Part shown: piece after piece, positions 26,617-35,971 of the stretch
Position numbering within the stretch: position 1 is the first letter of the stretch
Layout of the letters: each line of letters opens with the position of its first letter
DNA from: Candidatus Poribacteria bacterium
GTDB taxonomy: Bacteria > Poribacteria > WGA-4E > WGA-3G
Direction: 5' to 3'
Assembly: GCA_012267415.1 (NCBI GenBank)
Contig: JAAXGN010000015.1
Location: forward strand, 124,001 to 188,000
DNA: 64,000 nt
Translations under genes and position numbers: made by a program
The notes under the pieces: generated by a model
What the model was told of the DNA's origin: nothing
Database searches by the model: none
What the model saw: the letters and a program-made list of their open reading frames with translations, nothing else

Positions 26617-28353
26617 ATGCAAAACAATACACCCGGATGGGTGAAGGTTGCTGAGTTAAGTGATGTGCCTGAAGGACAACCGAAGGCAGTAAAGATGGGA
26701 GAAGGACGGAGCATTGCTCTCTTTAACGTTGAAGGGAAGATATATGCTACCGACAATCAATGTCCTCATATGGGATATCCCTTAACACGCGGTACGATTC
26801 GGAACGGAATTCTGACTTGTGATTGGCATCGTCGGAGTTTTGATTTAGAAGGTGGCGGATGTTTCCATGTGGAGTGTGATGATCTGAAGGTTTTCCCGGT
26901 TGATATTCGTGGAGACGAGATATGGATTGAACCCGGTGATCTAACATACCGCCGCGCAGAAGAACATAAAAAGTTGCTACGAGAAGGACTTTTGAGTGAA
27001 GACCGTTGGACAATGTCCAAAGCAATTGCGTTATTGCTTAAGGGCGGCGTCCCAGAAGAAGAGGTGATGGGTTCGATTCTGGAACACGTTGCGCGCCATA
27101 TCCCATCAGCTCATGGGTCAGAAGGTGGTGCGGATGTTTCTAAACTTATCAACGGTCTCCGAGTTGGGAGTAGATATGAGGGTGAAGATAGACTCATCGC
27201 TGTAACAACTGCTGCCTGTTCCGCTGCTGGAGAAGCACGTGAACGACTTGAAGTTGTGCCACTTCCCGAACCTGTTTCATGGGAAAAGATTGAGCGATGG
27301 GTTCGTATTTTCTCTTATGAAGGTCAGGCAGGACGGATTGAAAGATGTTTGTTCACTGCTTATGAAAAGGGTGATGAAGACAGATTGCGACCACTTCTTT
27401 TTGAGTGTTCTGTTGAACCCAAATTTATTGATGAACCGCAGATTCCGCTTTATGTAAGTTATCTTTCTGAAGTGGTTGACGAATTTGGATGGGATAGGAC
27501 GAAAGACCTGTTTTTTTATCTCGGGGCAGACCTTGTAGGACATCATCCTGCGGATCCTGAACGATATCGTAGAGATGCAATTAACATCCTGCAGGAGATG
27601 AAGTCCACGATCGAAAGTGCAACATTAGAGCGGACGAATAAATTCGATGAAGATGCGTTTGTTGAAGCACTTACCAGTGTAGATCTTCAACGTTCATTTG
27701 AAGAGGTGCAAGCAGTTATCGTTGATGGTGTTAGGTTAGACAAAGTTATAACCACACTTGTTCTGCTTGCGGCGGACCGTATGGCGAACACACCTGTGAA
27801 CGTAGATGCAGGGTGGTGGAACTTAACGATGGAGCTCAACTTGGCATCGTCCTTACGTAGTGCCAAGCAGGTCGGTGGAGAGCTTGTCGCAGCGAAAGGA
27901 CTTTTCCACGTTGCATGGCAAATCTTTGCAGATCGCTGGATCAACATCCCCACGCGTCTTCTGAGCGAACCTTTAAGTGATAAGAAACTCGCTGTTGCGA
28001 ATGAAGAGGCGGGTATTGACCTTGTTATTAACACTATTGAGTCACTCAATGTGCAAGATGTAGGACCGCAGGTGCTCAGATATTTGAATGCAGGTTATTC
28101 TGCTGAGAATCTACTGATGGCGATTGGACATTCCGTACTATGGGATGATACTGGTAGTGAAGTATTGCCGACATTACGTACCATTTTTGATGAATGGAAA
28201 CACGCTGAAGGACATCCTGCACAACCACAGTTACTGGTAGGATTAGCACGTTATGTCACAGATATCCGTTCTAATACGGATAACAAATCTGCGGCTACGA
28301 CAGCGATGAATTTCGCCGAAGGTAGAACAACAATTGAGGTATTTGAGGCGTAA
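26617..28353 (+). CDS. Rieske [2Fe-2S] protein with large C-terminal helical domain, copy 1
   Basis: Residues 1-110 form a Rieske ferredoxin-like domain with all four ligands: Cys49 and His51 (CPHMG), Cys68 and His71 (CDWH). About 460 residues follow that I do not recognise. They appear all-helical, with conserved marks EDRLIAVTTAA, a central AADRMANTPVN then GWWNL, and FADRWINIP, which are shared with the second copy at 29327. No signal peptide or membrane segment is visible, so it is probably a cytoplasmic electron-transfer protein or oxygenase-like enzyme. AAGGA lies before ATG 26617. It is followed seven bases later by the ankyrin gene and then copy 2, clearly one transcription unit. Confidence 0.8.
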   Translation: MQNNTPGWVKVAELSDVPEGQPKAVKMGEGRSIALFNVEGKIYATDNQCPHMGYPLTRGTIRNGILTCDWHRRSFDLEGGGCFHVECDDLKVFPVDIRGDEIWIEPGDLTYRRAEEHKKLLREGLLSEDRWTMSKAIALLLKGGVPEEEVMGSILEHVARHIPSAHGSEGGADVSKLINGLRVGSRYEGEDRLIAVTTAACSAAGEARERLEVVPLPEPVSWEKIERWVRIFSYEGQAGRIERCLFTAYEKGDEDRLRPLLFECSVEPKFIDEPQIPLYVSYLSEVVDEFGWDRTKDLFFYLGADLVGHHPADPERYRRDAINILQEMKSTIESATLERTNKFDEDAFVEALTSVDLQRSFEEVQAVIVDGVRLDKVITTLVLLAADRMANTPVNVDAGWWNLTMELNLASSLRSAKQVGGELVAAKGLFHVAWQIFADRWINIPTRLLSEPLSDKKLAVANEEAGIDLVINTIESLNVQDVGPQVLRYLNAGYSAENLLMAIGHSVLWDDTGSEVLPTLRTIFDEWKHAEGHPAQPQLLVGLARYVTDIRSNTDNKSAATTAMNFAEGRTTIEVFEA

Positions 28354-28359
28354 TTCCTG

Positions 28360-29325
28360 ATGAAACAGACCGATTGGCACTTGCAGCGTGGTGCATTTAT
28401 TGATGCTGTGAATAACGGTGATGCACAATACGTCAAAACGTTGTTGGCAGAAAACAGTGAGCTTGTAAACACTCTTGATTGTGACGGTATGTCGCCATTA
28501 CATTTCGCAGCAACGCCGCGTATAGCAGAAATTTTGCTCAATCACGGTGCTGATATCAATCTACGTGATCGTGACCATAACGGAACACCAGCACAATGGA
28601 CGATACGCAAAAGACCTGAGGTCTGTCGTTACCTCCTTGAACAGGGTGCTAAGGCGGATGTCATCCTCTACTGTGTGATGGGTGATGTTGAACGGGCAAG
28701 GAGAGAATTTGAAAAGAGCCCTGAACTCCTGACGTTGCGGATTAATGTAAAATCACCTAAAGGATACACTGTTCCATCCAAGTCAGATGGCGAGGAATTG
28801 GCTGAAGTTCCCGGTGGACATGTTTACGCTTATCAGATTGGACCGACGATGCCGCTGCTTGAAATAGCACTGCAATCTAAGCAGACAGAAATCGTTGATC
28901 TGCTTATAGATTTAGGATATGAAATCAATTTACGTGATTGGTATTCACTGGTCGGTCAAGGTCCGAAGCGGTTTGATGCATTACTCAAAGGTTTTATTGC
29001 CAAAGGTCGTGACATCAATGCGCTGCAAAAGCATCGCAAAGGTATGTGGTCACCACTGCATTGGGTTGCACAACGCGGTTTAACTGTAGGGATTGAAACG
29101 TTGTTAGAGAACGGTGCTGATCCGAATGTGACAGATGATAAGGGACAGACACCTTTACACTTTATCGCGCAGAAGGGGATCGGCAAAAATCAGGTGCAGC
29201 TATTGCTTGAACATGGTGCTGATCTCAGCATTCGTGACGATGCTGGACAAACTCCGCTTGATTACGCTAAGAAGACTAAACGTAAATCCTTTGTGGATTT
29301 CTTAACGAAGTTAGGAGAAATATAA
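28360..29325 (+). CDS. Ankyrin-repeat protein between two Rieske genes
   Basis: The 321-residue protein carries about six ankyrin repeats. Clear ones are SPLHFAATPRIAEILLNHGA, then TPAQWTIRKRPEV with LLEQGAK, SPLHWVAQRG with LLENGADPN, and TPLHFIAQKG with LLEHGADL. The ending is the capping TPLDYAKKTKRKSF. The region around residues 140-205 is divergent and longer than a standard repeat (GGHVYAYQIGPTMPLLEIAL). It starts seven bases after Rieske copy 1 and ends one base before the ATG of copy 2, so it is likely a scaffold for these proteins. A partial, deleted copy of this gene lies at 24784. No catalytic motif is visible. Confidence 0.88.
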   Translation: MKQTDWHLQRGAFIDAVNNGDAQYVKTLLAENSELVNTLDCDGMSPLHFAATPRIAEILLNHGADINLRDRDHNGTPAQWTIRKRPEVCRYLLEQGAKADVILYCVMGDVERARREFEKSPELLTLRINVKSPKGYTVPSKSDGEELAEVPGGHVYAYQIGPTMPLLEIALQSKQTEIVDLLIDLGYEINLRDWYSLVGQGPKRFDALLKGFIAKGRDINALQKHRKGMWSPLHWVAQRGLTVGIETLLENGADPNVTDDKGQTPLHFIAQKGIGKNQVQLLLEHGADLSIRDDAGQTPLDYAKKTKRKSFVDFLTKLGEI

Positions 29326-29326
29326 A

Positions 29327-31075
29327 ATGTTATCAGAAAATGGAAATTTTGTAAAAGTCGCTGCCCGCGATGATATAGCAGAAGGGAAACCGAGGGCAGT
29401 GAGAGTTGAAGGACACAGTATTGCCTTATTTGAACATGAGGGTAATGTCTATGCAACAGATAACCAATGTCCACACATGGGATATCCGCTTATCAGAGGA
29501 CACGTCAAACGTGGTGTATTAGCCTGTGATTGGCACGGTTGGAGTTATGATATGGAAGGTGGTGGGTGCTTCACTGGTGGATGTGATGACCTTGCTACAT
29601 TTCCCGTTGATGTTCGAAATGGTGATATCTATGTAGATGTTGGTAGTGGTGGAAAGAAACGTGATGATGCACACTTTCTGTTGTTAAAAGAAGGTTTGTT
29701 CTCTCACGACAGTTGGACGCTTTCCAAAGCGATTGCTATTATGTTAGCAAAAGGTGTCTCAGAAGAAGAGACTTTAGAGATCATGGTTAAGCACATGGTG
29801 CGTCATATTACGACAGCGGAAGACTTCCGAAGCGGTGGTGGTCGTGTCGCGACATATATGCATGGGATTAAGGTTGCGAACATGTATGAAACCGATGACC
29901 GTCTAATTCCGCTGATGATTGCGGCGACGCATGCTGCAGGTGGACATAATGACTGTCCTGCCCGTCAACCGCTTCCGCCTCCGGTGAACTGGGAAAAACT
30001 TGAAAACTGGATAAGAGTATTCACAGCGGATAAAGAATGGGAAGGGATCGAGAAATGCCTTATCACAGCACGACACTTAGGTGGACACGAGGATAAATTC
30101 ATTCCGTTGTTCTTAGATTGTGCATCGCAATGGTTCTTTCTTGCCGCTTCCAGAAACCTTATTGATCTGTGTCATTTGGCTGAATTACTTGAAAAATGGG
30201 GTTGGGAATTAACGGGTGAGTTGGTTTGCAACCTTAGTGCCAAGATACTTGGTCAGGGACGTGGTCGTCCAGGAGAACGTCTCCGCGAAGCTATCCAAAA
30301 GGTGGAAGAGCTTGAGCATATATTTGATGAACTTCCACAAGAAAAGTCACCTGACGCGGATGTTGAATTTGACGAGGATGAACTATCTGCGGATCTCGTC
30401 AGTGGGGATATAGACACGATTTTTGATGCTATTGCCAAAGTTCTCACTGCGGGTGTTTCCATTGATGCAATAGCAACTACTATGGTCATGACTGCTGCTG
30501 ACAGGATGGCAAGGACACCAGTCAACATGAGTCCAGGGTGGTGGGATCTACAAGAGGAGATGGAATTAGCTGCTAATGTCAGGAAGGTACTACGTTTCGG
30601 TGGCACAAAAGTTGCTGCAAGAGCACTCTTCCATTGTGGATGGCGTTTCTACGCTAACCGCTGGCTAAACATCCGTCATCAACCGATCTCAGAAGCAAAA
30701 ACGACCACAACCACTAAAGTTCTTGATGAAGACATTGCACTTGACGCAATTATTGATGGGATAGAATCTGTCCGCATTCAGGAAATTGGAAGACGTACCC
30801 GTGAGTATCTGAATTCTGGATGTTCAGCTGAGAAACTGGTCTATGAAATGGGACAATGTATCCTCAAGGATGACAATGGTGAAGACCTGCTGAGTACTAT
30901 TCACATTGTGGATAGAGAGTGGCATTACTGTGATACGCATCCTGCCAGAAACCAACTGATCGTTGGTTTGGCACGATGGGCAACTGATGTACGTAGACGT
31001 ACCGGTAACGATTCCGCTGTGCAAACTGCACACCGTTTCGCCAAAGGTGAAACTGCTACGGAATTGTATGAGTAG
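29327..31075 (+). CDS. Rieske [2Fe-2S] protein with large C-terminal helical domain, copy 2
   Basis: This is a full-length paralog of the gene at 26617, in the same order and with similar length (582 residues). Rieske ligands are Cys48, His50, Cys67 and His70. The C-terminal part repeats the shared marks DDRLIPLMIAATHAAG, AADRMARTPVNMSPGWWDL and FYANRWLNI; in the first 200 residues HMVRHITTAED parallels HVARHIPSAHG of copy 1. The ribosome binding site AGGAGA overlaps the end of the ankyrin gene. After its stop a short hairpin at 31096-31121 may end the transcript. The divergence between copies suggests an old duplication with kept function, perhaps a heterodimer. Confidence 0.8.
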   Translation: MLSENGNFVKVAARDDIAEGKPRAVRVEGHSIALFEHEGNVYATDNQCPHMGYPLIRGHVKRGVLACDWHGWSYDMEGGGCFTGGCDDLATFPVDVRNGDIYVDVGSGGKKRDDAHFLLLKEGLFSHDSWTLSKAIAIMLAKGVSEEETLEIMVKHMVRHITTAEDFRSGGGRVATYMHGIKVANMYETDDRLIPLMIAATHAAGGHNDCPARQPLPPPVNWEKLENWIRVFTADKEWEGIEKCLITARHLGGHEDKFIPLFLDCASQWFFLAASRNLIDLCHLAELLEKWGWELTGELVCNLSAKILGQGRGRPGERLREAIQKVEELEHIFDELPQEKSPDADVEFDEDELSADLVSGDIDTIFDAIAKVLTAGVSIDAIATTMVMTAADRMARTPVNMSPGWWDLQEEMELAANVRKVLRFGGTKVAARALFHCGWRFYANRWLNIRHQPISEAKTTTTTKVLDEDIALDAIIDGIESVRIQEIGRRTREYLNSGCSAEKLVYEMGQCILKDDNGEDLLSTIHIVDREWHYCDTHPARNQLIVGLARWATDVRRRTGNDSAVQTAHRFAKGETATELYE

Positions 31076-31095
31076 AACATACTAACACTGATGTG

Positions 31096-31121
31096 GGGTA
31101 AGGTATAAATGCCTTACCCTT
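31096..31121 (+). terminator. Possible terminator after the Rieske cassette
   Basis: GGGTAAGG and CCTTACCC form an 8-bp stem with an 8-base loop, but only two T follow directly, so termination may be partial. It lies 20 bases after the stop of Rieske copy 2. Confidence 0.5.
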
Positions 31122-31158: not shown

Positions 31159-31665
31159 ATGAACAATAATAACGAATCTTATACCGATGAAAAGGGACGC
31201 ACCCGTTGGCGCGTCAACGATGAAATCTCAAATAGATTACTGGAGTTACATACGTTCCTTATAATTGCAGGCTATCCCGAAGACCACGCATCACGATACC
31301 CTCGTTTAGCACATTCTATATCCCGTTTTCCTGAATCTGTCGCAGATCTTGTTGATCAGGGACGACTAATAGAAGAAATCGGAGGCGTTGGTCAAATCGT
31401 TGAGACTATCATCATACAATACTTGGAAACAGGAACCTGTTCAAAGATACAGGAATATGCAGGAGATATTCCACAGTCAATCGCAGAACTTGTACCTATA
31501 CCTGGTCTTGGGGCTAAGACCATAAAACGACTCTATGAGGATGTTGACGTGGTCAGTCTTGCTTCACTTAGAACTGCAATTGATGATGGTAAACTTAAAG
31601 GATTTAGAGGTATTGGCAAGAAGACTTTGGATAAAATTGAGGAATACCTTGATGCAAACCTATAA
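31159..31665 (+). CDS. PolX-type helix-hairpin-helix protein without polymerase domain, copy 1
   Basis: The protein corresponds to the N-terminal 150 residues of bacterial PolX/DNA polymerase beta enzymes: an 8-kDa-like helical region (LLELHTFLIIAGYPEDHASRYPRL cut short here), a first HhH (IGGVGQIVETIIIQYLETG) and a second HhH (VPIPGLGAKTIKRLYED), then FRGIGKKTLDKIEEYL. HhH motifs bind DNA backbone without sequence preference. The palm, fingers and PHP parts of PolX are absent. ATG 31159 is chosen; GTG 31132 would add nine residues. It is followed 27 bases later by the MORN protein, and this pair recurs at 33641-34592 around a WD40 lipoprotein. Confidence 0.8.
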   Translation: MNNNNESYTDEKGRTRWRVNDEISNRLLELHTFLIIAGYPEDHASRYPRLAHSISRFPESVADLVDQGRLIEEIGGVGQIVETIIIQYLETGTCSKIQEYAGDIPQSIAELVPIPGLGAKTIKRLYEDVDVVSLASLRTAIDDGKLKGFRGIGKKTLDKIEEYLDANL

Positions 31666-31692
31666 CACGGTTTATCCGACTGGACAACACTT

Positions 31693-32163
31693 ATGGCTAA
31701 TTCACGAACAACTGGCGAAATGATTGACGATAAAAAACATGGGAAGTGGATTACCTATTACCAAAATGGCATGAAACGCAGCGAAGGAAATTATGCACAG
31801 GGTAAGAAGGAAGGTCTATGGGTCCATTACCACAAGAATGGCAACGTTGAAAGTAAAGCCTCCTTCAGTGATGGAAAGTATGAAGGTGAATGTATTACTT
31901 ATCATCCAAACGGGAATCTGAGATCTTGTGGGGTTTATCCTAAACACATAGGGAAATCCTACGATGGTAAGAAGGAGGGTGCTTGGTACAATTACGAAGA
32001 AGATGGTGAAACTGTATGGTTAATCGTCACTTACAAGAAGGGAGGCAGTCGTGCGAAACCTGATGAGTATCCGCTTGGTGTTTGTCATGTCTGCGGTGAA
32101 GGGAGACGATTAAGTTGGGAAGGTAGATGTCCAAAATGTGGTGAAGCAATTGATGCGATGTAG
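31693..32163 (+). CDS. MORN/YwqK-type repeat protein with C-terminal zinc ribbon, copy 1
   Basis: The 156-residue protein has about four MORN-like repeats of the form G-x-W-x-x-Y/H-x-x-N-G (GKWITYYQNG, GLWVHYHKNG, GECITYHPNG, GAWYNYEEDG). It ends in a zinc ribbon with Cys131, Cys134, Cys146 and Cys149 (CHVCG...CPKCG). MORN-type beta-hairpin repeats of the YwqK group occur in antitoxin-like proteins and effectors. No signal peptide is present. It follows the HhH gene with a short gap and a weak ribosome binding site. The partner copy at 34128 keeps all four Cys at the same positions. Confidence 0.82.
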   Translation: MANSRTTGEMIDDKKHGKWITYYQNGMKRSEGNYAQGKKEGLWVHYHKNGNVESKASFSDGKYEGECITYHPNGNLRSCGVYPKHIGKSYDGKKEGAWYNYEEDGETVWLIVTYKKGGSRAKPDEYPLGVCHVCGEGRRLSWEGRCPKCGEAIDAM

Positions 32164-32314
32164 GTTGATTTAGGTTGGTAAGCGTTTCTATATGGTGTTG
32201 TCTGTAGGAGCGATCTCCGAATCGCGAATTATATTGTTTGAGAATCGGATATGTTGTGCTACAGTATAGTTCAAGTAATTATATGGTTCACTCAAAACAT
32301 ATCAGGAGAAACAG

Positions 32315-33598
32315 ATGAAAATTGCATTTCGTTTTTTAATATTGGTTAGTACCTGCTTTATCACTTTTTCCCTGGCGGGTTGTGTGCTTATAATGGATGG
32401 CATTGTAAAACCACCCAATAATCAACCTACTGTTGAAGAATTTACTGTTCCAAACGTGTTTGAGTCTGGAGAAACACTGGAATTTCGTATTGCTGCAAGT
32501 GACCAAGATGGTGATACATTGACCTTTACATGGCAAGCAGATGCCGGACAACTGAATACAACGTCAGGGACAACGGTAAAATGGACTGCTCCGAAGGATG
32601 TTGCGGCTGTTAACATCATTGTCTCTGTGAATGATGGGGTCGGTAAACCCACAAGGGCAGAGAAAATGATACTAAGTTCTCACCCCAAAACTTTTAGAGA
32701 ATATAAAACTCGATTGCTTACTGGACATACTGATAAGGTATACAGCGTAACGTTCAGTCCGGATGGCAAAATAATCGCGAGTGGGAGTGGAGACAAGACT
32801 GTTCGTCTGTGGGATGCTGCGACAGGAAAACATCTTCGTACACTGACAGGACGGCAGTGTACATTCACCAGTGTTTCATTCAGTCCGGATGGGAAAACAA
32901 TCGCTGCTGTGGGAGGCATAGATATTTATTTTTGGGATGTTGCGACAGGACTTCAGCTGCATACTATCACAGGGGATGCAAATGTCATTGATGAAGTATC
33001 TGATTTCCTGTGTGTCTCATTTAGTCCGGATGGAAAAACAATTGCAAGTGGCGGAGCAGTTAGGGACACGTCTGTCTATATTTGGGATGCACGTACTGGG
33101 ACGGAGATCCATAACCTTACAGGTCATGACTCTACTATATGGGGTGTCGCATTCAGTCCGGATGGAAAATTACTGGCAAGTGTAAGCGATGATGGCACTC
33201 TCCGTCTTTGGAATACTGCAACAGGAGAACATTTGCAGACGTTTACAGATAAACCTAATAGGTTTCGTTGTGTTTCATTCAGTCCTGATGGTAAGATCAT
33301 CGCGAGTGGCAATGGGGTGGAACTGACTCTTTGGGATACTGCAACTGGCAGACGACTTAGAACAGTTAGTTTCGCACCAGGAGGAGTCAGCTCTGTCTCG
33401 TTCAGTCCAAATGGAAAGACAATCGCTACTGGAGATTCACACGACAAAGTGCGTCTTTGGGATGCTGATACATTGACAGAAATCCAAGTATTCACAGGAC
33501 ATACGGCATGGGTCCCAAGTGTCGCTTTCAGTCCAGATGGAAACAGGCTCCTTAGTGGCTGCGGGAGTGAGGACGGAACTATTCGGATTTATGAATAA
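32315..33598 (+). CDS. WD40-repeat lipoprotein
   Basis: A signal peptide ends in the lipobox LAGC (about residues 20-23), so the mature protein should be a membrane-anchored lipoprotein. Residues 35-120 look like an Ig/cadherin-type domain ([18 protein letters not shown]). Residues 130-427 form seven WD40 blades marked by repeated FSPDGK and LWD, enough for one complete propeller. AGGAGAAAC precedes ATG 32315. It lies between the two HhH-MORN pairs and is on the same strand. Being outside the cytoplasm, it would not meet those proteins directly unless they function at the membrane. A degenerate palindromic repeat sits upstream at 32203-32226. Confidence 0.9.
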
Positions 33599-33640
33599 TA
33601 CGAGTGAACTCTCTATAAAAGATGAGGATGGACACAATCT

Positions 33641-34099
33641 ATGACAAACGCAGAAATCGCACAGAAACTATTGGAACTACACACAATACTGTTAGTTGCC
33701 GACTATCCAGAAGACCATGCATCGCGCTATCCCCGCTTAGCCTATACGATTTCTCGTATGGAGGAATCTGTTGCTGAACTGGTCGCTGAAGGAAAGTTAC
33801 AAGAGGCAATTCCGGGTGTGGGTGATATAGTTGCAACGATCATAACGGAATATGTTCAAACTGGAACATGCTCAAAGTTGGAAGAGTATGCAGCAGATGT
33901 ACCTGAGACAATAGTTGAACTCATCCCTGTTCCCGGACTTGGCGCGAAAACGATAAAACGGTTCTATCAGGAACTCGGTATTGATAGTTTAGCATCTCTC
34001 AAACAAGCAATTGATGAGGATAAATTTAAGGACTTTCGGGGTGTTGGCAAAAAGACATTGGAGAATCTCAAGGCATATATTGAAGAGAATATGGAGTAG
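33641..34099 (+). CDS. PolX-type helix-hairpin-helix protein, copy 2
   Basis: Paralog of the gene at 31159: the same YPEDHASRYPRLA segment, then IPGVGDIVATIITEYVQTG and VPGLGAKTIKRFYQELG, ending FRGVGKKTLENLKAYI. At 152 residues it lacks the 17-residue N-terminal extension of copy 1. Only the DNA-binding front part of PolX is present; no polymerase residues exist. GAGGATGG lies upstream of ATG 33641. It starts 42 bases after the WD40 gene and is followed by the second MORN gene, repeating the order of copy 1. Confidence 0.8.
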   Translation: MTNAEIAQKLLELHTILLVADYPEDHASRYPRLAYTISRMEESVAELVAEGKLQEAIPGVGDIVATIITEYVQTGTCSKLEEYAADVPETIVELIPVPGLGAKTIKRFYQELGIDSLASLKQAIDEDKFKDFRGVGKKTLENLKAYIEENME

Positions 34100-34127
34100 T
34101 CATAGTTAAAAAGGTGGAGGAAATATA

Positions 34128-34592
34128 ATGGCAAGTACACGAGATTCTGGGGAAATGGTTGATGGTAAGAAGCATGGGTATTGGATTACATATTTTGCGA
34201 GCGGGTTGAAGCGAAGCGAGGGAAACTACATTCACGGTAAGAAGGACGGTCCTTGGATCCAATATCATAAGAATGGCAACATAGCAAGTAGAGGCTTCTT
34301 CCGTGATGATAAGTTTGAAGGTGATTATATCTGCTATCATGAAAATGGAAATCGTAAATGGGGTGGTCCCTACAAAACACATGATGGCACTTCATCTGAT
34401 GGAAGAAAAATGGGAGTCTGGCACTGTTGGGAAGAAGATGGAGAGACTGTCTGGCGAATCATCACATATAAGAAAGGTGGTGCGCGTGCGAAACCCGACG
34501 AACATCCTTTCGGGGAATGTGCTGGTTGCGGTGAGGGAAGACGTTCAACATGGGGAGACAATTGTCCACGATGTGGTGAGGTGCTTGATTGA
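34128..34592 (+). CDS. MORN/YwqK-type repeat protein with zinc ribbon, copy 2
   Basis: Paralog of the gene at 31693, 154 residues, with MORN-like repeats GYWITYFASG, GPWIQYHKNG, GDYICYHENG and GVWHCWEEDG. The C-terminal zinc ribbon Cys131, Cys134, Cys146, Cys149 (CAGCG...CPRCG) is at the same positions. The whole alignment is without gaps until the last residues, so the duplication took place as a unit with the HhH gene. GGTGGAGG lies before ATG 34128. The IS605-type element begins about 90 bases downstream. Confidence 0.82.
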   Translation: MASTRDSGEMVDGKKHGYWITYFASGLKRSEGNYIHGKKDGPWIQYHKNGNIASRGFFRDDKFEGDYICYHENGNRKWGGPYKTHDGTSSDGRKMGVWHCWEEDGETVWRIITYKKGGARAKPDEHPFGECAGCGEGRRSTWGDNCPRCGEVLD

Positions 34593-34858: not shown

Positions 34859-35971
34859 ATGAGAAAGTCGTATAAGTATAAACTACAGAATCAGTCTAAC
34901 GTTATCAAGATTGGCAACATGCTTGATGACATGCATGCGATACACGTGCATTTTATGCTATTGCAACGTAGATATTATCGCATGTTTGGTAAGAACATCA
35001 GTTATACTCGCATGTCCTCTCACTTGACGAAACTGAAAAGGACAACTAAACCGCATTGGAATGAGTTGCCGAGTCAAGTTTCACAGAATGTTGTGAAGCG
35101 TATTGGTGATGCTTACAATAGTTTTCTGACTAATATAAAAGAACGTAAGGAAGGGATAACGACACGTAAGGTTGGCAGACCGCATATTAAGCCACAACAT
35201 AAATATAACTCAATGACGTTCACGCAAGCAGGCTACGAGATTGAAGATAATCGTATCAAGATAAACTGTATTGAGACGTGGTATGCCTTTCATAAACATC
35301 GTGAAATGAAAGGTGAAATCAAAACGATCACGATCAAGCGTGATAGATGCGGAGACTATTGGATATGCTTTTCCTGTGATAATGTTGACGATTCAGAACC
35401 CTTTGCTAAGACAGGTAAGAGAGCAGGCTTTGATTTTGGATTGAAGACATTTCTAACAAGCAGTGATGGCAATAAAATAAACTCTCCACAGTTTCTTAAG
35501 AAGTCCTTGAATAAGTTGAGATCACTTAATAAAGCATTTTCACGCAAAGTTAGGGGTTCAGGTAACTGGTATCGTGTGTTGCGTGCGGTATGTAGGCACT
35601 ATCGCGACATCTCTAACCGGCGTCTTGACTGGCACTGGAAACTTGCCACACATCTTTGTCGTGAATACGATGCCCTTGTCTTTGAGAACCTAAATATAGA
35701 TGGTATGAAAAGGCTCTGGGGACGCAAAGTATCTGACTTGTCTTTTGCAAAGTTCTTGCTGATAATGGAACAGAAATGTGCAAAACATGGCAAGACGTTC
35801 AAACAAGTAGGCAAGTGGACTGCTACAACTCAACCTTGTAGCGACTGCGGATATAAGAACAAGGACTTGTCTCTCTTAGATAGACAGTGGATATGTTCTG
35901 AATGCAAAACACATCACGATAGAGACATAAACGCTGCTATGAATATCAAACAGGCTGGCTTAGCAGCCTAA
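34859..35971 (+). CDS. tnpB: TnpB RNA-guided nuclease of IS605-type element
   Basis: TnpB is a RuvC-type nuclease guided by an RNA (omega RNA) made from the element's 3' end. All catalytic and zinc residues are present: Asp192 (GFDFG), Glu276 (LVFENL), Asp354/Asp356 (HHDRDINAA) and the zinc finger Cys327, Cys330, Cys346, Cys349. At 370 residues the protein is full length and probably active. There is no tnpA. No clear ribosome binding site precedes ATG 34859. The omega RNA would come from the last part of the gene and the region up to the right-end hairpin at about 36044. Confidence 0.93.
   Translation: MRKSYKYKLQNQSNVIKIGNMLDDMHAIHVHFMLLQRRYYRMFGKNISYTRMSSHLTKLKRTTKPHWNELPSQVSQNVVKRIGDAYNSFLTNIKERKEGITTRKVGRPHIKPQHKYNSMTFTQAGYEIEDNRIKINCIETWYAFHKHREMKGEIKTITIKRDRCGDYWICFSCDNVDDSEPFAKTGKRAGFDFGLKTFLTSSDGNKINSPQFLKKSLNKLRSLNKAFSRKVRGSGNWYRVLRAVCRHYRDISNRRLDWHWKLATHLCREYDALVFENLNIDGMKRLWGRKVSDLSFAKFLLIMEQKCAKHGKTFKQVGKWTATTQPCSDCGYKNKDLSLLDRQWICSECKTHHDRDINAAMNIKQAGLAA

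What the first reader, a model, noticed from the sequence alone, without database searches (positions are those of the whole stretch)
31159..34592. Duplicated two-gene module: PolX-type HhH protein plus MORN/zinc-ribbon protein around a WD40 lipoprotein
The order is HhH1-MORN1-WD40-HhH2-MORN2, all on one strand. Both HhH proteins are only the DNA-binding front part of PolX, without any polymerase residues. Both MORN proteins end with a zinc ribbon whose four Cys are at identical positions (131, 134, 146, 149). That the pair was duplicated together and both copies stayed intact suggests that the two proteins work as a unit. MORN/YwqK proteins are known as antitoxin-like or effector proteins, and HhH proteins bind DNA, so a DNA-directed accessory or defence module is conceivable. 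I know of no described system with this composition.
Basis: partly seen in the sequence, partly recalled or inferred. Interest (0 to 1): 0.72.

Follow-up and report, generated by a model that had tools for sequence, protein, structure and literature searches.

The report
Polymerase-less PolX head in Poribacteria
A sponge-associated bacterial lineage carries, at one conserved chromosomal place, stand-alone copies of the DNA-gripping front end of a repair polymerase next to repeat-type proteins (ankyrin, WD40, MORN); the genes are real and maintained, but the proposed two-protein unit is only a family-level neighbourhood and its job is untested.

Summary
In detail: HhH_a, MORN_a, a WD40 lipoprotein, HhH_b and MORN_b lie on one strand (31159-34592); the HhH pair is 62% and the MORN pair 60% identical, and both HhH proteins are the N-terminal PolX module only. 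The genome is a Candidatus Poribacteria. In its family 57 of 58 genomes have the stand-alone HhH protein and 54 of 58 also an intact MORN protein. Rooted trees put both duplications at the base of the family, so joint duplication is plausible; HhH_b and MORN_b are under purifying selection. But HhH and MORN are not a fixed unit: in a second family HhH occurs without MORN in 6 of 6 genomes of one genus, beside a WD40 gene (6 of 6) and an ankyrin gene (3 of 6); three other genomes have a tail-less MORN without stand-alone HhH; losses are not coupled. The steadiest HhH_a neighbour is WD40 (49 of 54 loci), and the fusions seen join ankyrin to HhH (5 genomes). No defence, phage or plasmid link was found. 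Most likely HhH is a non-enzymatic, probably DNA-binding adaptor with repeat-protein partners; MORN joined later. Mechanism inferred, not shown.

The parts
31159..31665 (+). HhH_a: stand-alone PolX-type N-terminal module (168 aa) with a short N-terminal extension (KGRTRW); the mechanical ORF starts at GTG 31132, the first ATG is 31159
   Evidence: extension in 51 of 54 HhH_a and 0 of 27 HhH_b loci
31693..32163 (+). MORN_a: MORN_2 repeats plus C-terminal four-Cys zinc-ribbon-like tail (156 aa)
32315..33598 (+). WD40 protein with lipoprotein-like signal (by eye; 427 aa); not the WD40 normally upstream of HhH_a
33641..34099 (+). HhH_b: second stand-alone PolX-type N-terminal module (152 aa)
34128..34592 (+). 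MORN_b: MORN_2 repeats plus four-Cys tail (154 aa)
31095..31120 (+). strong hairpin (11 pairs) between the Rieske2 gene and HhH_a; possibly a terminator, so HhH_a may start a new transcription unit (inference)
   Evidence: the consensus scan did not list it
26617..28353 (+). Rieske1 (context): Rieske domain plus about 470 aa without Pfam match
28360..29325 (+). ankyrin-repeat protein between the Rieske genes (context; a different ankyrin from the one fused to HhH elsewhere)
29327..31075 (+). Rieske2 (context), 42% identical to Rieske1
34859..35971 (+). IS200/IS605 TnpB-like gene downstream (context)

Best explanation
The HhH proteins are non-enzymatic adaptors made from the N-terminal (8 kDa plus thumb) part of a family X DNA polymerase. 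They keep the fold and the helix-hairpin-helix hairpins, have lost the lyase lysine and the whole polymerase and PHP parts, and are encoded (or fused) with repeat-type proteins. SHOWN here: homology and predicted fold, absence of the catalytic parts, purifying selection on HhH_b and MORN_b, WD40-HhH (with ankyrin in half of the cases) as the neighbourhood shared by two families, ankyrin-HhH fusions, and MORN genes with a four-Cys tail next to HhH in one family with both duplications at its base. INFERRED: the HhH module holds DNA (perhaps nicks, gaps or ends) without processing it, and ankyrin and MORN proteins give it protein contacts, so that the locus makes a DNA-bound scaffold or regulator. 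The MORN protein is a later, partly exchangeable accessory.
For: AlphaFold model of HhH (pLDDT 89.9) best matches PolX of Thermus thermophilus (3au2, TM 0.78 on the query); profile search finds PolX chains first (E 2.5e-21). The position of pol beta Lys72 (numbering recalled) is Ile in 85 and Met in 1 of 86 sequences; no Lys at the Lys68 position. PG[LM]G[AP]KTIK is present in 75 of 81 and the third hairpin in 80 of 81 family sequences. dN/dS: HhH_b 0.063 and 0.068, MORN_b 0.069 and 0.035 against G005 and G015. WD40 directly upstream of HhH_a in 49 of 54 loci (47 near full length, 2 partial) and upstream of HhH in 6 of 6 genomes of genus g8. Ankyrin fused to HhH_b in 4 genomes and to HhH_a in 1; the G014 fused ankyrin is 48-51% identical over 205 aa to the ankyrin next to WD40-HhH in three g8 genomes, whereas the other ankyrins listed match at 27-34% over 96-206 aa. 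MORN downstream of HhH_b in 25 of 27 loci.
Against: No DNA binding was tested. HhH is acidic (median pI 4.7-4.8), unlike what one expects of a DNA binder, although four PolX-length proteins of the phylum that my script extracted have acidic heads too (4.8-5.3; 4 of 10 loci tried). In g8 the third hairpin GxG is degenerate in the four sequences printed to that point, and one of the six g8 HhH frames (G079) has an in-frame stop. The WD40 upstream of HhH has a signal-peptide-like N terminus (by eye), so it may sit outside the cytoplasm and could then not bind HhH. Rieske, LamG, DUF5916 and downstream genes are also syntenic, so conserved order alone proves little. G000 itself lacks the WD40 and ankyrin partners at this place.
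Confidence: 0.4

Rival explanations
1. Positional neighbours only: a slowly rearranging chromosomal region in which HhH, MORN, Rieske, LamG and other genes are kept in order by descent, with unrelated functions.
For: Much of the stretch from Rieske to DUF5916 and on to the rhodanese-PTPS-FolE-SDR genes is syntenic in many family genomes; in G080 the Rieske pair lies about 360 kb from HhH, so some neighbours differ between families; losses of HhH and MORN are not coupled.
Against: Ankyrin-HhH fusions (5 genomes) and WD40-HhH adjacency in two families; gaps of 27-28 nt between HhH and MORN in the window.
Confidence: 0.3
2. HhH no longer binds DNA and is now a protein-protein module in a metabolic or envelope-linked cluster (Rieske, DUF3419/haem-oxygenase-like/acetyltransferase, LamG, DUF5916).
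For: Acidic pI, lost lyase lysine, metabolic-type neighbours incl. a DUF3419/Haem_oxygenas_2/acetyltransferase cassette in 21 loci.
Against: Hairpins 2 and 3 with their Gly and Lys/Thr are highly conserved in the family; PolX heads of this phylum are acidic as well (4 of 10).
Confidence: 0.18
3. Defence or toxin-antitoxin module, with MORN/YwqK as antitoxin or effector.
For: Both MORN proteins match the MORN_2 repeat, which is the repeat of YwqK-named proteins (recalled); ywqJ-ywqK is described as a putative polymorphic toxin-antitoxin pair (PMC8321402, passages seen). The neighbours match some PADLOC models: TnpB those of Cas12f, the Rieske-flanked ankyrin PDC-M72A and Ankyrin, the WD40 HEAT-ARM_XIII, all explicable by shared fold or repeat type.
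Against: No PADLOC match for HhH or MORN at E<=0.01; no toxin gene next to MORN in the window; near-universal in the family (54-57 of 58), unlike patchy defence genes; MORN not found in phages or confirmed in viral contigs, and in plasmids only 3 records with partial matches.
Confidence: 0.05
4. Secreted or host-directed eukaryote-like proteins of a sponge symbiont; HhH would act on host DNA.
For: Involvement of eukaryote-like repeat proteins in host-microbe contact has been postulated for sponge symbionts (PMC3909097, passages seen).
Against: HhH, MORN and the fused ankyrin show no signal peptide by eye; HhH is nearly universal in the family.
Confidence: 0.05
5. Decayed copies of a full PolX.
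For: Clear homology to the PolX N terminus.
Against: Purifying selection on HhH_b, own clades in the family with relatives in a second family, and a separate PolX: the PolX model matches beyond position 278, into the PHP part, in 55 of the 57 HhH-bearing family genomes (not in G020 and G028), 14 of 58 genomes reaching the curated cut-off; the G000 copy is a 587-aa protein.
Confidence: 0.02

Closest known systems
Bacterial PolX (family X DNA polymerase/3'-5' exonuclease), e.g. Thermus thermophilus PolX 3au2
   Same: 8 kDa plus thumb HhH module, 31% identity and TM 0.78 over 145 columns
   Different: No palm, fingers or PHP domain; lyase lysine replaced by Ile; stands alone or fused to ankyrin repeats. 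A survey of prokaryotic PolX describes catalytically altered PolX that keep the PHP domain and mostly the 8 kDa domain (PMC9226535, passages seen); that is a different reduction
YwqK-type MORN_2 proteins / MORN1
   Same: MORN_2 repeats; model resembles the MORN repeats of SET7/9 and MORN1
   Different: Short, with a C-terminal four-Cys tail; no toxin neighbour in the window. Work on MORN1 found dimerisation and no evidence for membrane binding (PMC7725318, passages seen)
Eukaryote-like repeat proteins of Poribacteria
   Same: Ankyrin and WD40 repeats in the same phylum (PMC3909097, passages seen)
   Different: Here next to, or fused with, a PolX-type head; the main text of that paper has 0 occurrences of 'helix-hairpin' and of 'polymerase'

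Membership tests
PolX (family X DNA polymerase) | N-terminal 8 kDa + thumb HhH module | tested here: met
PolX (family X DNA polymerase) | Palm with catalytic acidic triad | tested here: not met
   Protein ends after about position 145 of 571 of the PolX model; 152-168 aa in all
PolX (family X DNA polymerase) | PHP exonuclease domain | tested here: not met
PolX (family X DNA polymerase) | dRP-lyase lysine (pol beta Lys72, numbering recalled) | tested here: not met
   Ile in 85, Met in 1 of 86 sequences
PolX (family X DNA polymerase) | DNA binding | not testable with these tools
   only hairpin conservation seen
YwqK/MORN antitoxin | MORN_2 repeats | tested here: met
   PF07661 above cut-off in both
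YwqK/MORN antitoxin | Cognate toxin gene next to it | tested here: not met
   window neighbours by Pfam/NCBIfam/PADLOC are HhH, WD40, Rieske, ankyrin, TnpB
Known anti-phage defence system | Match of HhH or MORN to a PADLOC model | tested here: not met
   0 families at E<=0.01 for the four proteins
   HhH without MORN in 6 of 6 g8 genomes; tail-less MORN without stand-alone HhH in G072, G074, G083
   both splits at the family base, but support for HhH_b is 0.80, MORN_b 0.75, MORN_a 0.85, and histories within the family differ

The most novel reading that the evidence does not exclude
Poribacteria have uncoupled the DNA gap/end-recognition head of PolX from catalysis and turned it into an interchangeable platform: the same head is wired, by fusion or operon neighbourhood, to ankyrin, WD40 and MORN proteins with a zinc-ribbon-like tail, and it controls access of repair enzymes (including the separate PolX of the same cell) to DNA gaps.
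Probability: 0.13. Interest if true: 0.65.

Novelty: new variant of a known kind. Interest (0 to 1): 0.42.

Why it matters
If the adaptor reading holds, it would be a polymerase-free use of the PolX head in bacteria, joined to repeat-type proteins that are otherwise discussed as host-contact proteins of sponge symbionts. It also gives nearly every sampled member of an uncultured family a conserved, testable locus. For the finding itself the value is a correction: WD40-HhH, with ankyrin, is the part shared by two families; HhH-MORN is a family-level extension.

Tried and rejected
Defence/toxin-antitoxin: PADLOC gave nothing for HhH or MORN (its hits for TnpB, ankyrin and WD40 are named under the rival). 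PHROGs gave only weak matches (HhH_b to an NAD-ligase family, E 0.0012; MORN_b to a family of unknown function, E 0.0043). Viral contigs: candidates but no confirmed relative. Phages: 7 unannotated records match 57-63% of HhH_b at 32-37% identity, none match MORN. Plasmids: 27 records match HhH_b; of the 15 listed, 7 are annotated PolX, 1 PHP domain protein, 1 helix-hairpin-helix protein, 6 without annotation under the match; MORN 3 records, partial.

Decayed PolX: rejected. The first translation of L003 used the wrong strand and is not used.

Charge complementarity (acidic HhH, basic MORN) as sign of a complex: dropped, because PolX heads of the phylum are acidic too (4 of 10 loci gave a protein, the other 6 gave none by my script).

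Co-evolution by distance correlation: no significance test; HhH_b-MORN_a r 0.88 (18 genomes; 0.84 in 16 without G000/G005/G015), HhH_b-MORN_b 0.31 (23), HhH_a-MORN_a 0.65 (35), HhH_a-MORN_b 0.81 (44). Genomes with two copies of a type were left out. Read as evidence against fixed pairs only.

dN/dS: two species pairs only; HhH_a and MORN_a were not tested. The Rieske2 row G000 vs L064 compared two frames out of register (43% identity) and was dropped. Paralogue dS (2.0 and 2.8) is near saturation and was not used for dating.

Papers: no paper holds 'family X DNA polymerase' + 'helix-hairpin-helix' + 'ankyrin' or 'Poribacteria' + 'helix-hairpin-helix'; 'MORN repeat' + 'zinc ribbon' + 'bacteria' gave three papers, of which the one opened (passages) concerns separate fusions to heliorhodopsin. 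Only the open-licence library was searched.

No search for the g8-type ankyrin or WD40 as queries of their own outside the fetched stretches, except WD40 in G000.
Full report
Observation. All five genes are present as described. HhH_a starts at ATG 31159 inside a longer mechanical ORF. The HhH copies are 62% identical, the MORN copies 60%. Pfam finds HHH_8/HHH_5 in the HhH proteins and MORN_2 in the MORN proteins; NCBIfam matches HhH to about the first 145 of 571 positions of PolX only. The four Cys are invariant in the 21-row alignment and the spacing C-2-C-11-C-2-C occurs in 108 of 108 family pieces of 125 aa or more.

Organism and spread. In the window's family the HhH protein gives a match in 57 of 58 genomes; G004 has none. 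MORN gives a match in 57 of 58 by the tool's threshold (none in G021), but that of G004 is weak and that of G001 a fragment; in the stretches that I fetched, 54 of 58 genomes hold at least one MORN_a or MORN_b piece of 125 aa or more, all 54 also with HhH (without: G001, G004, G007, G021). Contig ends and fragments affect these counts.

Neighbourhood in the family. Mapping 26 reference proteins on 73 fetched stretches plus the window gives the usual order SHMT, Rieske1, ankyrin, Rieske2 (their relative order varies and some are missing), WD40, HhH_a, an optional DUF3419/Haem_oxygenas_2/acetyltransferase cassette (names), MORN_a, LamG, HhH_b where present, MORN_b, a DUF5916 protein and further genes. 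In genus g1 the order around HhH_b is often HhH_b, MORN_a, MORN_b. The gene directly upstream of HhH_a is WD40 in 49 of 54 loci (2 of them partial), Rieske2 in 4 (this window among them), ankyrin in 1; downstream it is MORN_a in 26, the cassette's first gene in 13, and other or nothing in 15. The 54 loci come from 53 genomes; G029 contributes two. HhH_b is followed by a MORN in 25 of 27 loci (16 MORN_b, 9 MORN_a). In G000 the usual WD40 is missing (best genome match 60 bits), and the WD40 lipoprotein between the pairs is a different protein that is also at this place in G005 and G018.

History. Rooted with outgroups from other families, HhH_a (54; support 0.994) and HhH_b (27; 0.797) are separate clades, as are MORN_b (56; 0.745) and MORN_a (52; 0.854), all split at the base of the family (FastTree; an IQ-TREE run timed out). 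This fits one joint duplication. It did not stay a unit. HhH_b is present in 27 of 58 genomes and MORN_b (125 aa or more) in 52 of 58, with 26 genomes having MORN_b without HhH_b. Presence is not coupled (Fisher p 0.31 for HhH_a/MORN_a, 0.20 for HhH_b/MORN_b). HhH_b is as similar between genera g1 and g3 (median 86%) as within g1 (84%), whereas MORN_b drops from 90% to 74-76% and HhH_a from 86% to 70-72%: HhH_b and MORN_b differ in history, perhaps by transfer of HhH_b. The short KGRTRW extension is in 51 of 54 HhH_a and 0 of 27 HhH_b loci and in the g8 HhH sequences printed, so HhH_b has lost it. Partial MORN remnants are found in several genomes.

Outside the family. Among 84 genomes of the phylum the stand-alone HhH protein is found in one more genus, g8 of another family of the order, in 6 of 6 genomes (in G079 with an in-frame stop), with no MORN match there. 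Its upstream neighbour is WD40 in 6 of 6 and an SDR gene follows in 6 of 6; ankyrin was found upstream in 3 of 6. Conversely, MORN relatives of 128-137 aa without the four-Cys tail occur in G072, G074 and G083, which have only a PolX-length HhH match; G065 and G066 have weaker MORN matches that I did not study. In G080 the Rieske pair lies about 360 kb from HhH, so the Rieske neighbourhood is not shared with that family either.

Fusions. Ankyrin repeats are fused in frame to HhH_b in G006, G007, G014 and G019, and to HhH_a in G022 (open frames, proteins of 367-396 aa). The G014 fused ankyrin is 48-51% identical over 205 aa to the ankyrin next to WD40-HhH in three g8 genomes; the other ankyrins listed match at 27-34% over 96-206 aa. 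So neighbourhood and fusion both tie HhH to this ankyrin.

The HhH protein. Its model (mean pLDDT 89.9) matches T. thermophilus PolX best (TM 0.78 of the query, rmsd 2.8). The lyase lysine position is Ile in 85 and Met in 1 of 86, and the Lys68 position is never Lys (pol beta numbering recalled). Hairpins 2 and 3 are kept in 75 and 80 of 81 family sequences. Against simple DNA binding stands the acidic pI, weakened by acidic heads of four PolX-length proteins of the phylum (4 of 10 tried). Selection: dN/dS of HhH_b 0.063 (vs G005) and 0.068 (vs G015), MORN_b 0.069 and 0.035. A separate PolX of 587 aa is encoded elsewhere in G000. With the NCBIfam PolX model, 55 of the 57 HhH-bearing family genomes have a match that reaches the PHP part; 14 of 58 reach the curated cut-off.

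The MORN protein. The model (pLDDT 83.3, tail region partly lower) resembles MORN repeats of SET7/9 and MORN1. PDB sequence search finds only two MORN1 sequences, weakly. The toxin-antitoxin idea for MORN_2 proteins goes back to YwqK (PMC8321402, passages seen); no toxin lies beside these genes in the window.

Transcription. A strong hairpin lies between Rieske2 and HhH_a (z -3.3; the only match of its pattern in the window); the consensus scan did not list it as a terminator. The short gaps HhH>MORN (27, 28 nt) suit cotranscription; neither is shown.

Verdict. The genes are real, old and maintained. The two-gene unit is partly supported within one family and contradicted outside it. The best reading is a PolX-derived, non-enzymatic adaptor with WD40/ankyrin as the older and MORN as the younger neighbours; DNA binding and partner binding are inferred.

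Noticed in passing
window 26617-31075: Two Rieske proteins (42% identical) flank an ankyrin protein with gaps of 6 and 1 nt; each has about 470 aa after the Rieske domain without a Pfam match. In genus g8 relatives exist elsewhere in the genome, as an adjacent pair in G080.
   Followed up: partly
L072:8756-11337 and 20 further loci: Cassette of a DUF3419 protein, a Haem_oxygenas_2 (iron-containing redox enzyme) protein and an acetyltransferase-like protein (last below cut-off), at different points of the locus; the next mapped gene is a MORN in 19 of 22 cases with a near-full acetyltransferase.
   Followed up: partly
G3-genus PolX, e.g. G051:C119, G053:C1, G043:C24: In many g3 genomes the PolX model matches in two pieces, about positions 2-207 and 296-565, with the middle part unmatched within one open frame: the separate PolX itself may have an altered palm/fingers region, as described for noncanonical PolX (PMC9226535, passages).
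   Followed up: no
L063, L065, L067, L079, L087, L089, L093, L119: Partial MORN remnants beside other copies, pointing to repeated loss or recombination between MORN paralogues; L089 lies near a contig end.
   Followed up: partly
window 34859-35971; L070, L072, L073, L074, L075, L078, L083, L119: TnpB-like IS200/IS605 genes or pieces recur in or near this locus in several genomes.
   Followed up: no
G004: The one family genome without HhH also lacks close Rieske relatives (best 24% identity) and has no PolX match beyond E 3.6e-6: genes lost or missing from the assembly (90% complete).
   Followed up: partly
G000 (whole genome): 249 WD40-type matches to one WD40 query in this genome: a WD40 neighbour by itself carries little weight.
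   Followed up: no
L104 and L134 (G029:C17 and C61): The same assembly holds two copies of the locus on two contigs with identical match scores; assembly duplicate or true duplication not resolved.
   Followed up: no
L235:2438-3526 (Bradyrhizobium plasmid NZ_CP126014.1): A 362-aa 'helix-hairpin-helix domain-containing protein' matching HhH_b, near a ligD gene: perhaps another shortened PolX.
   Followed up: no
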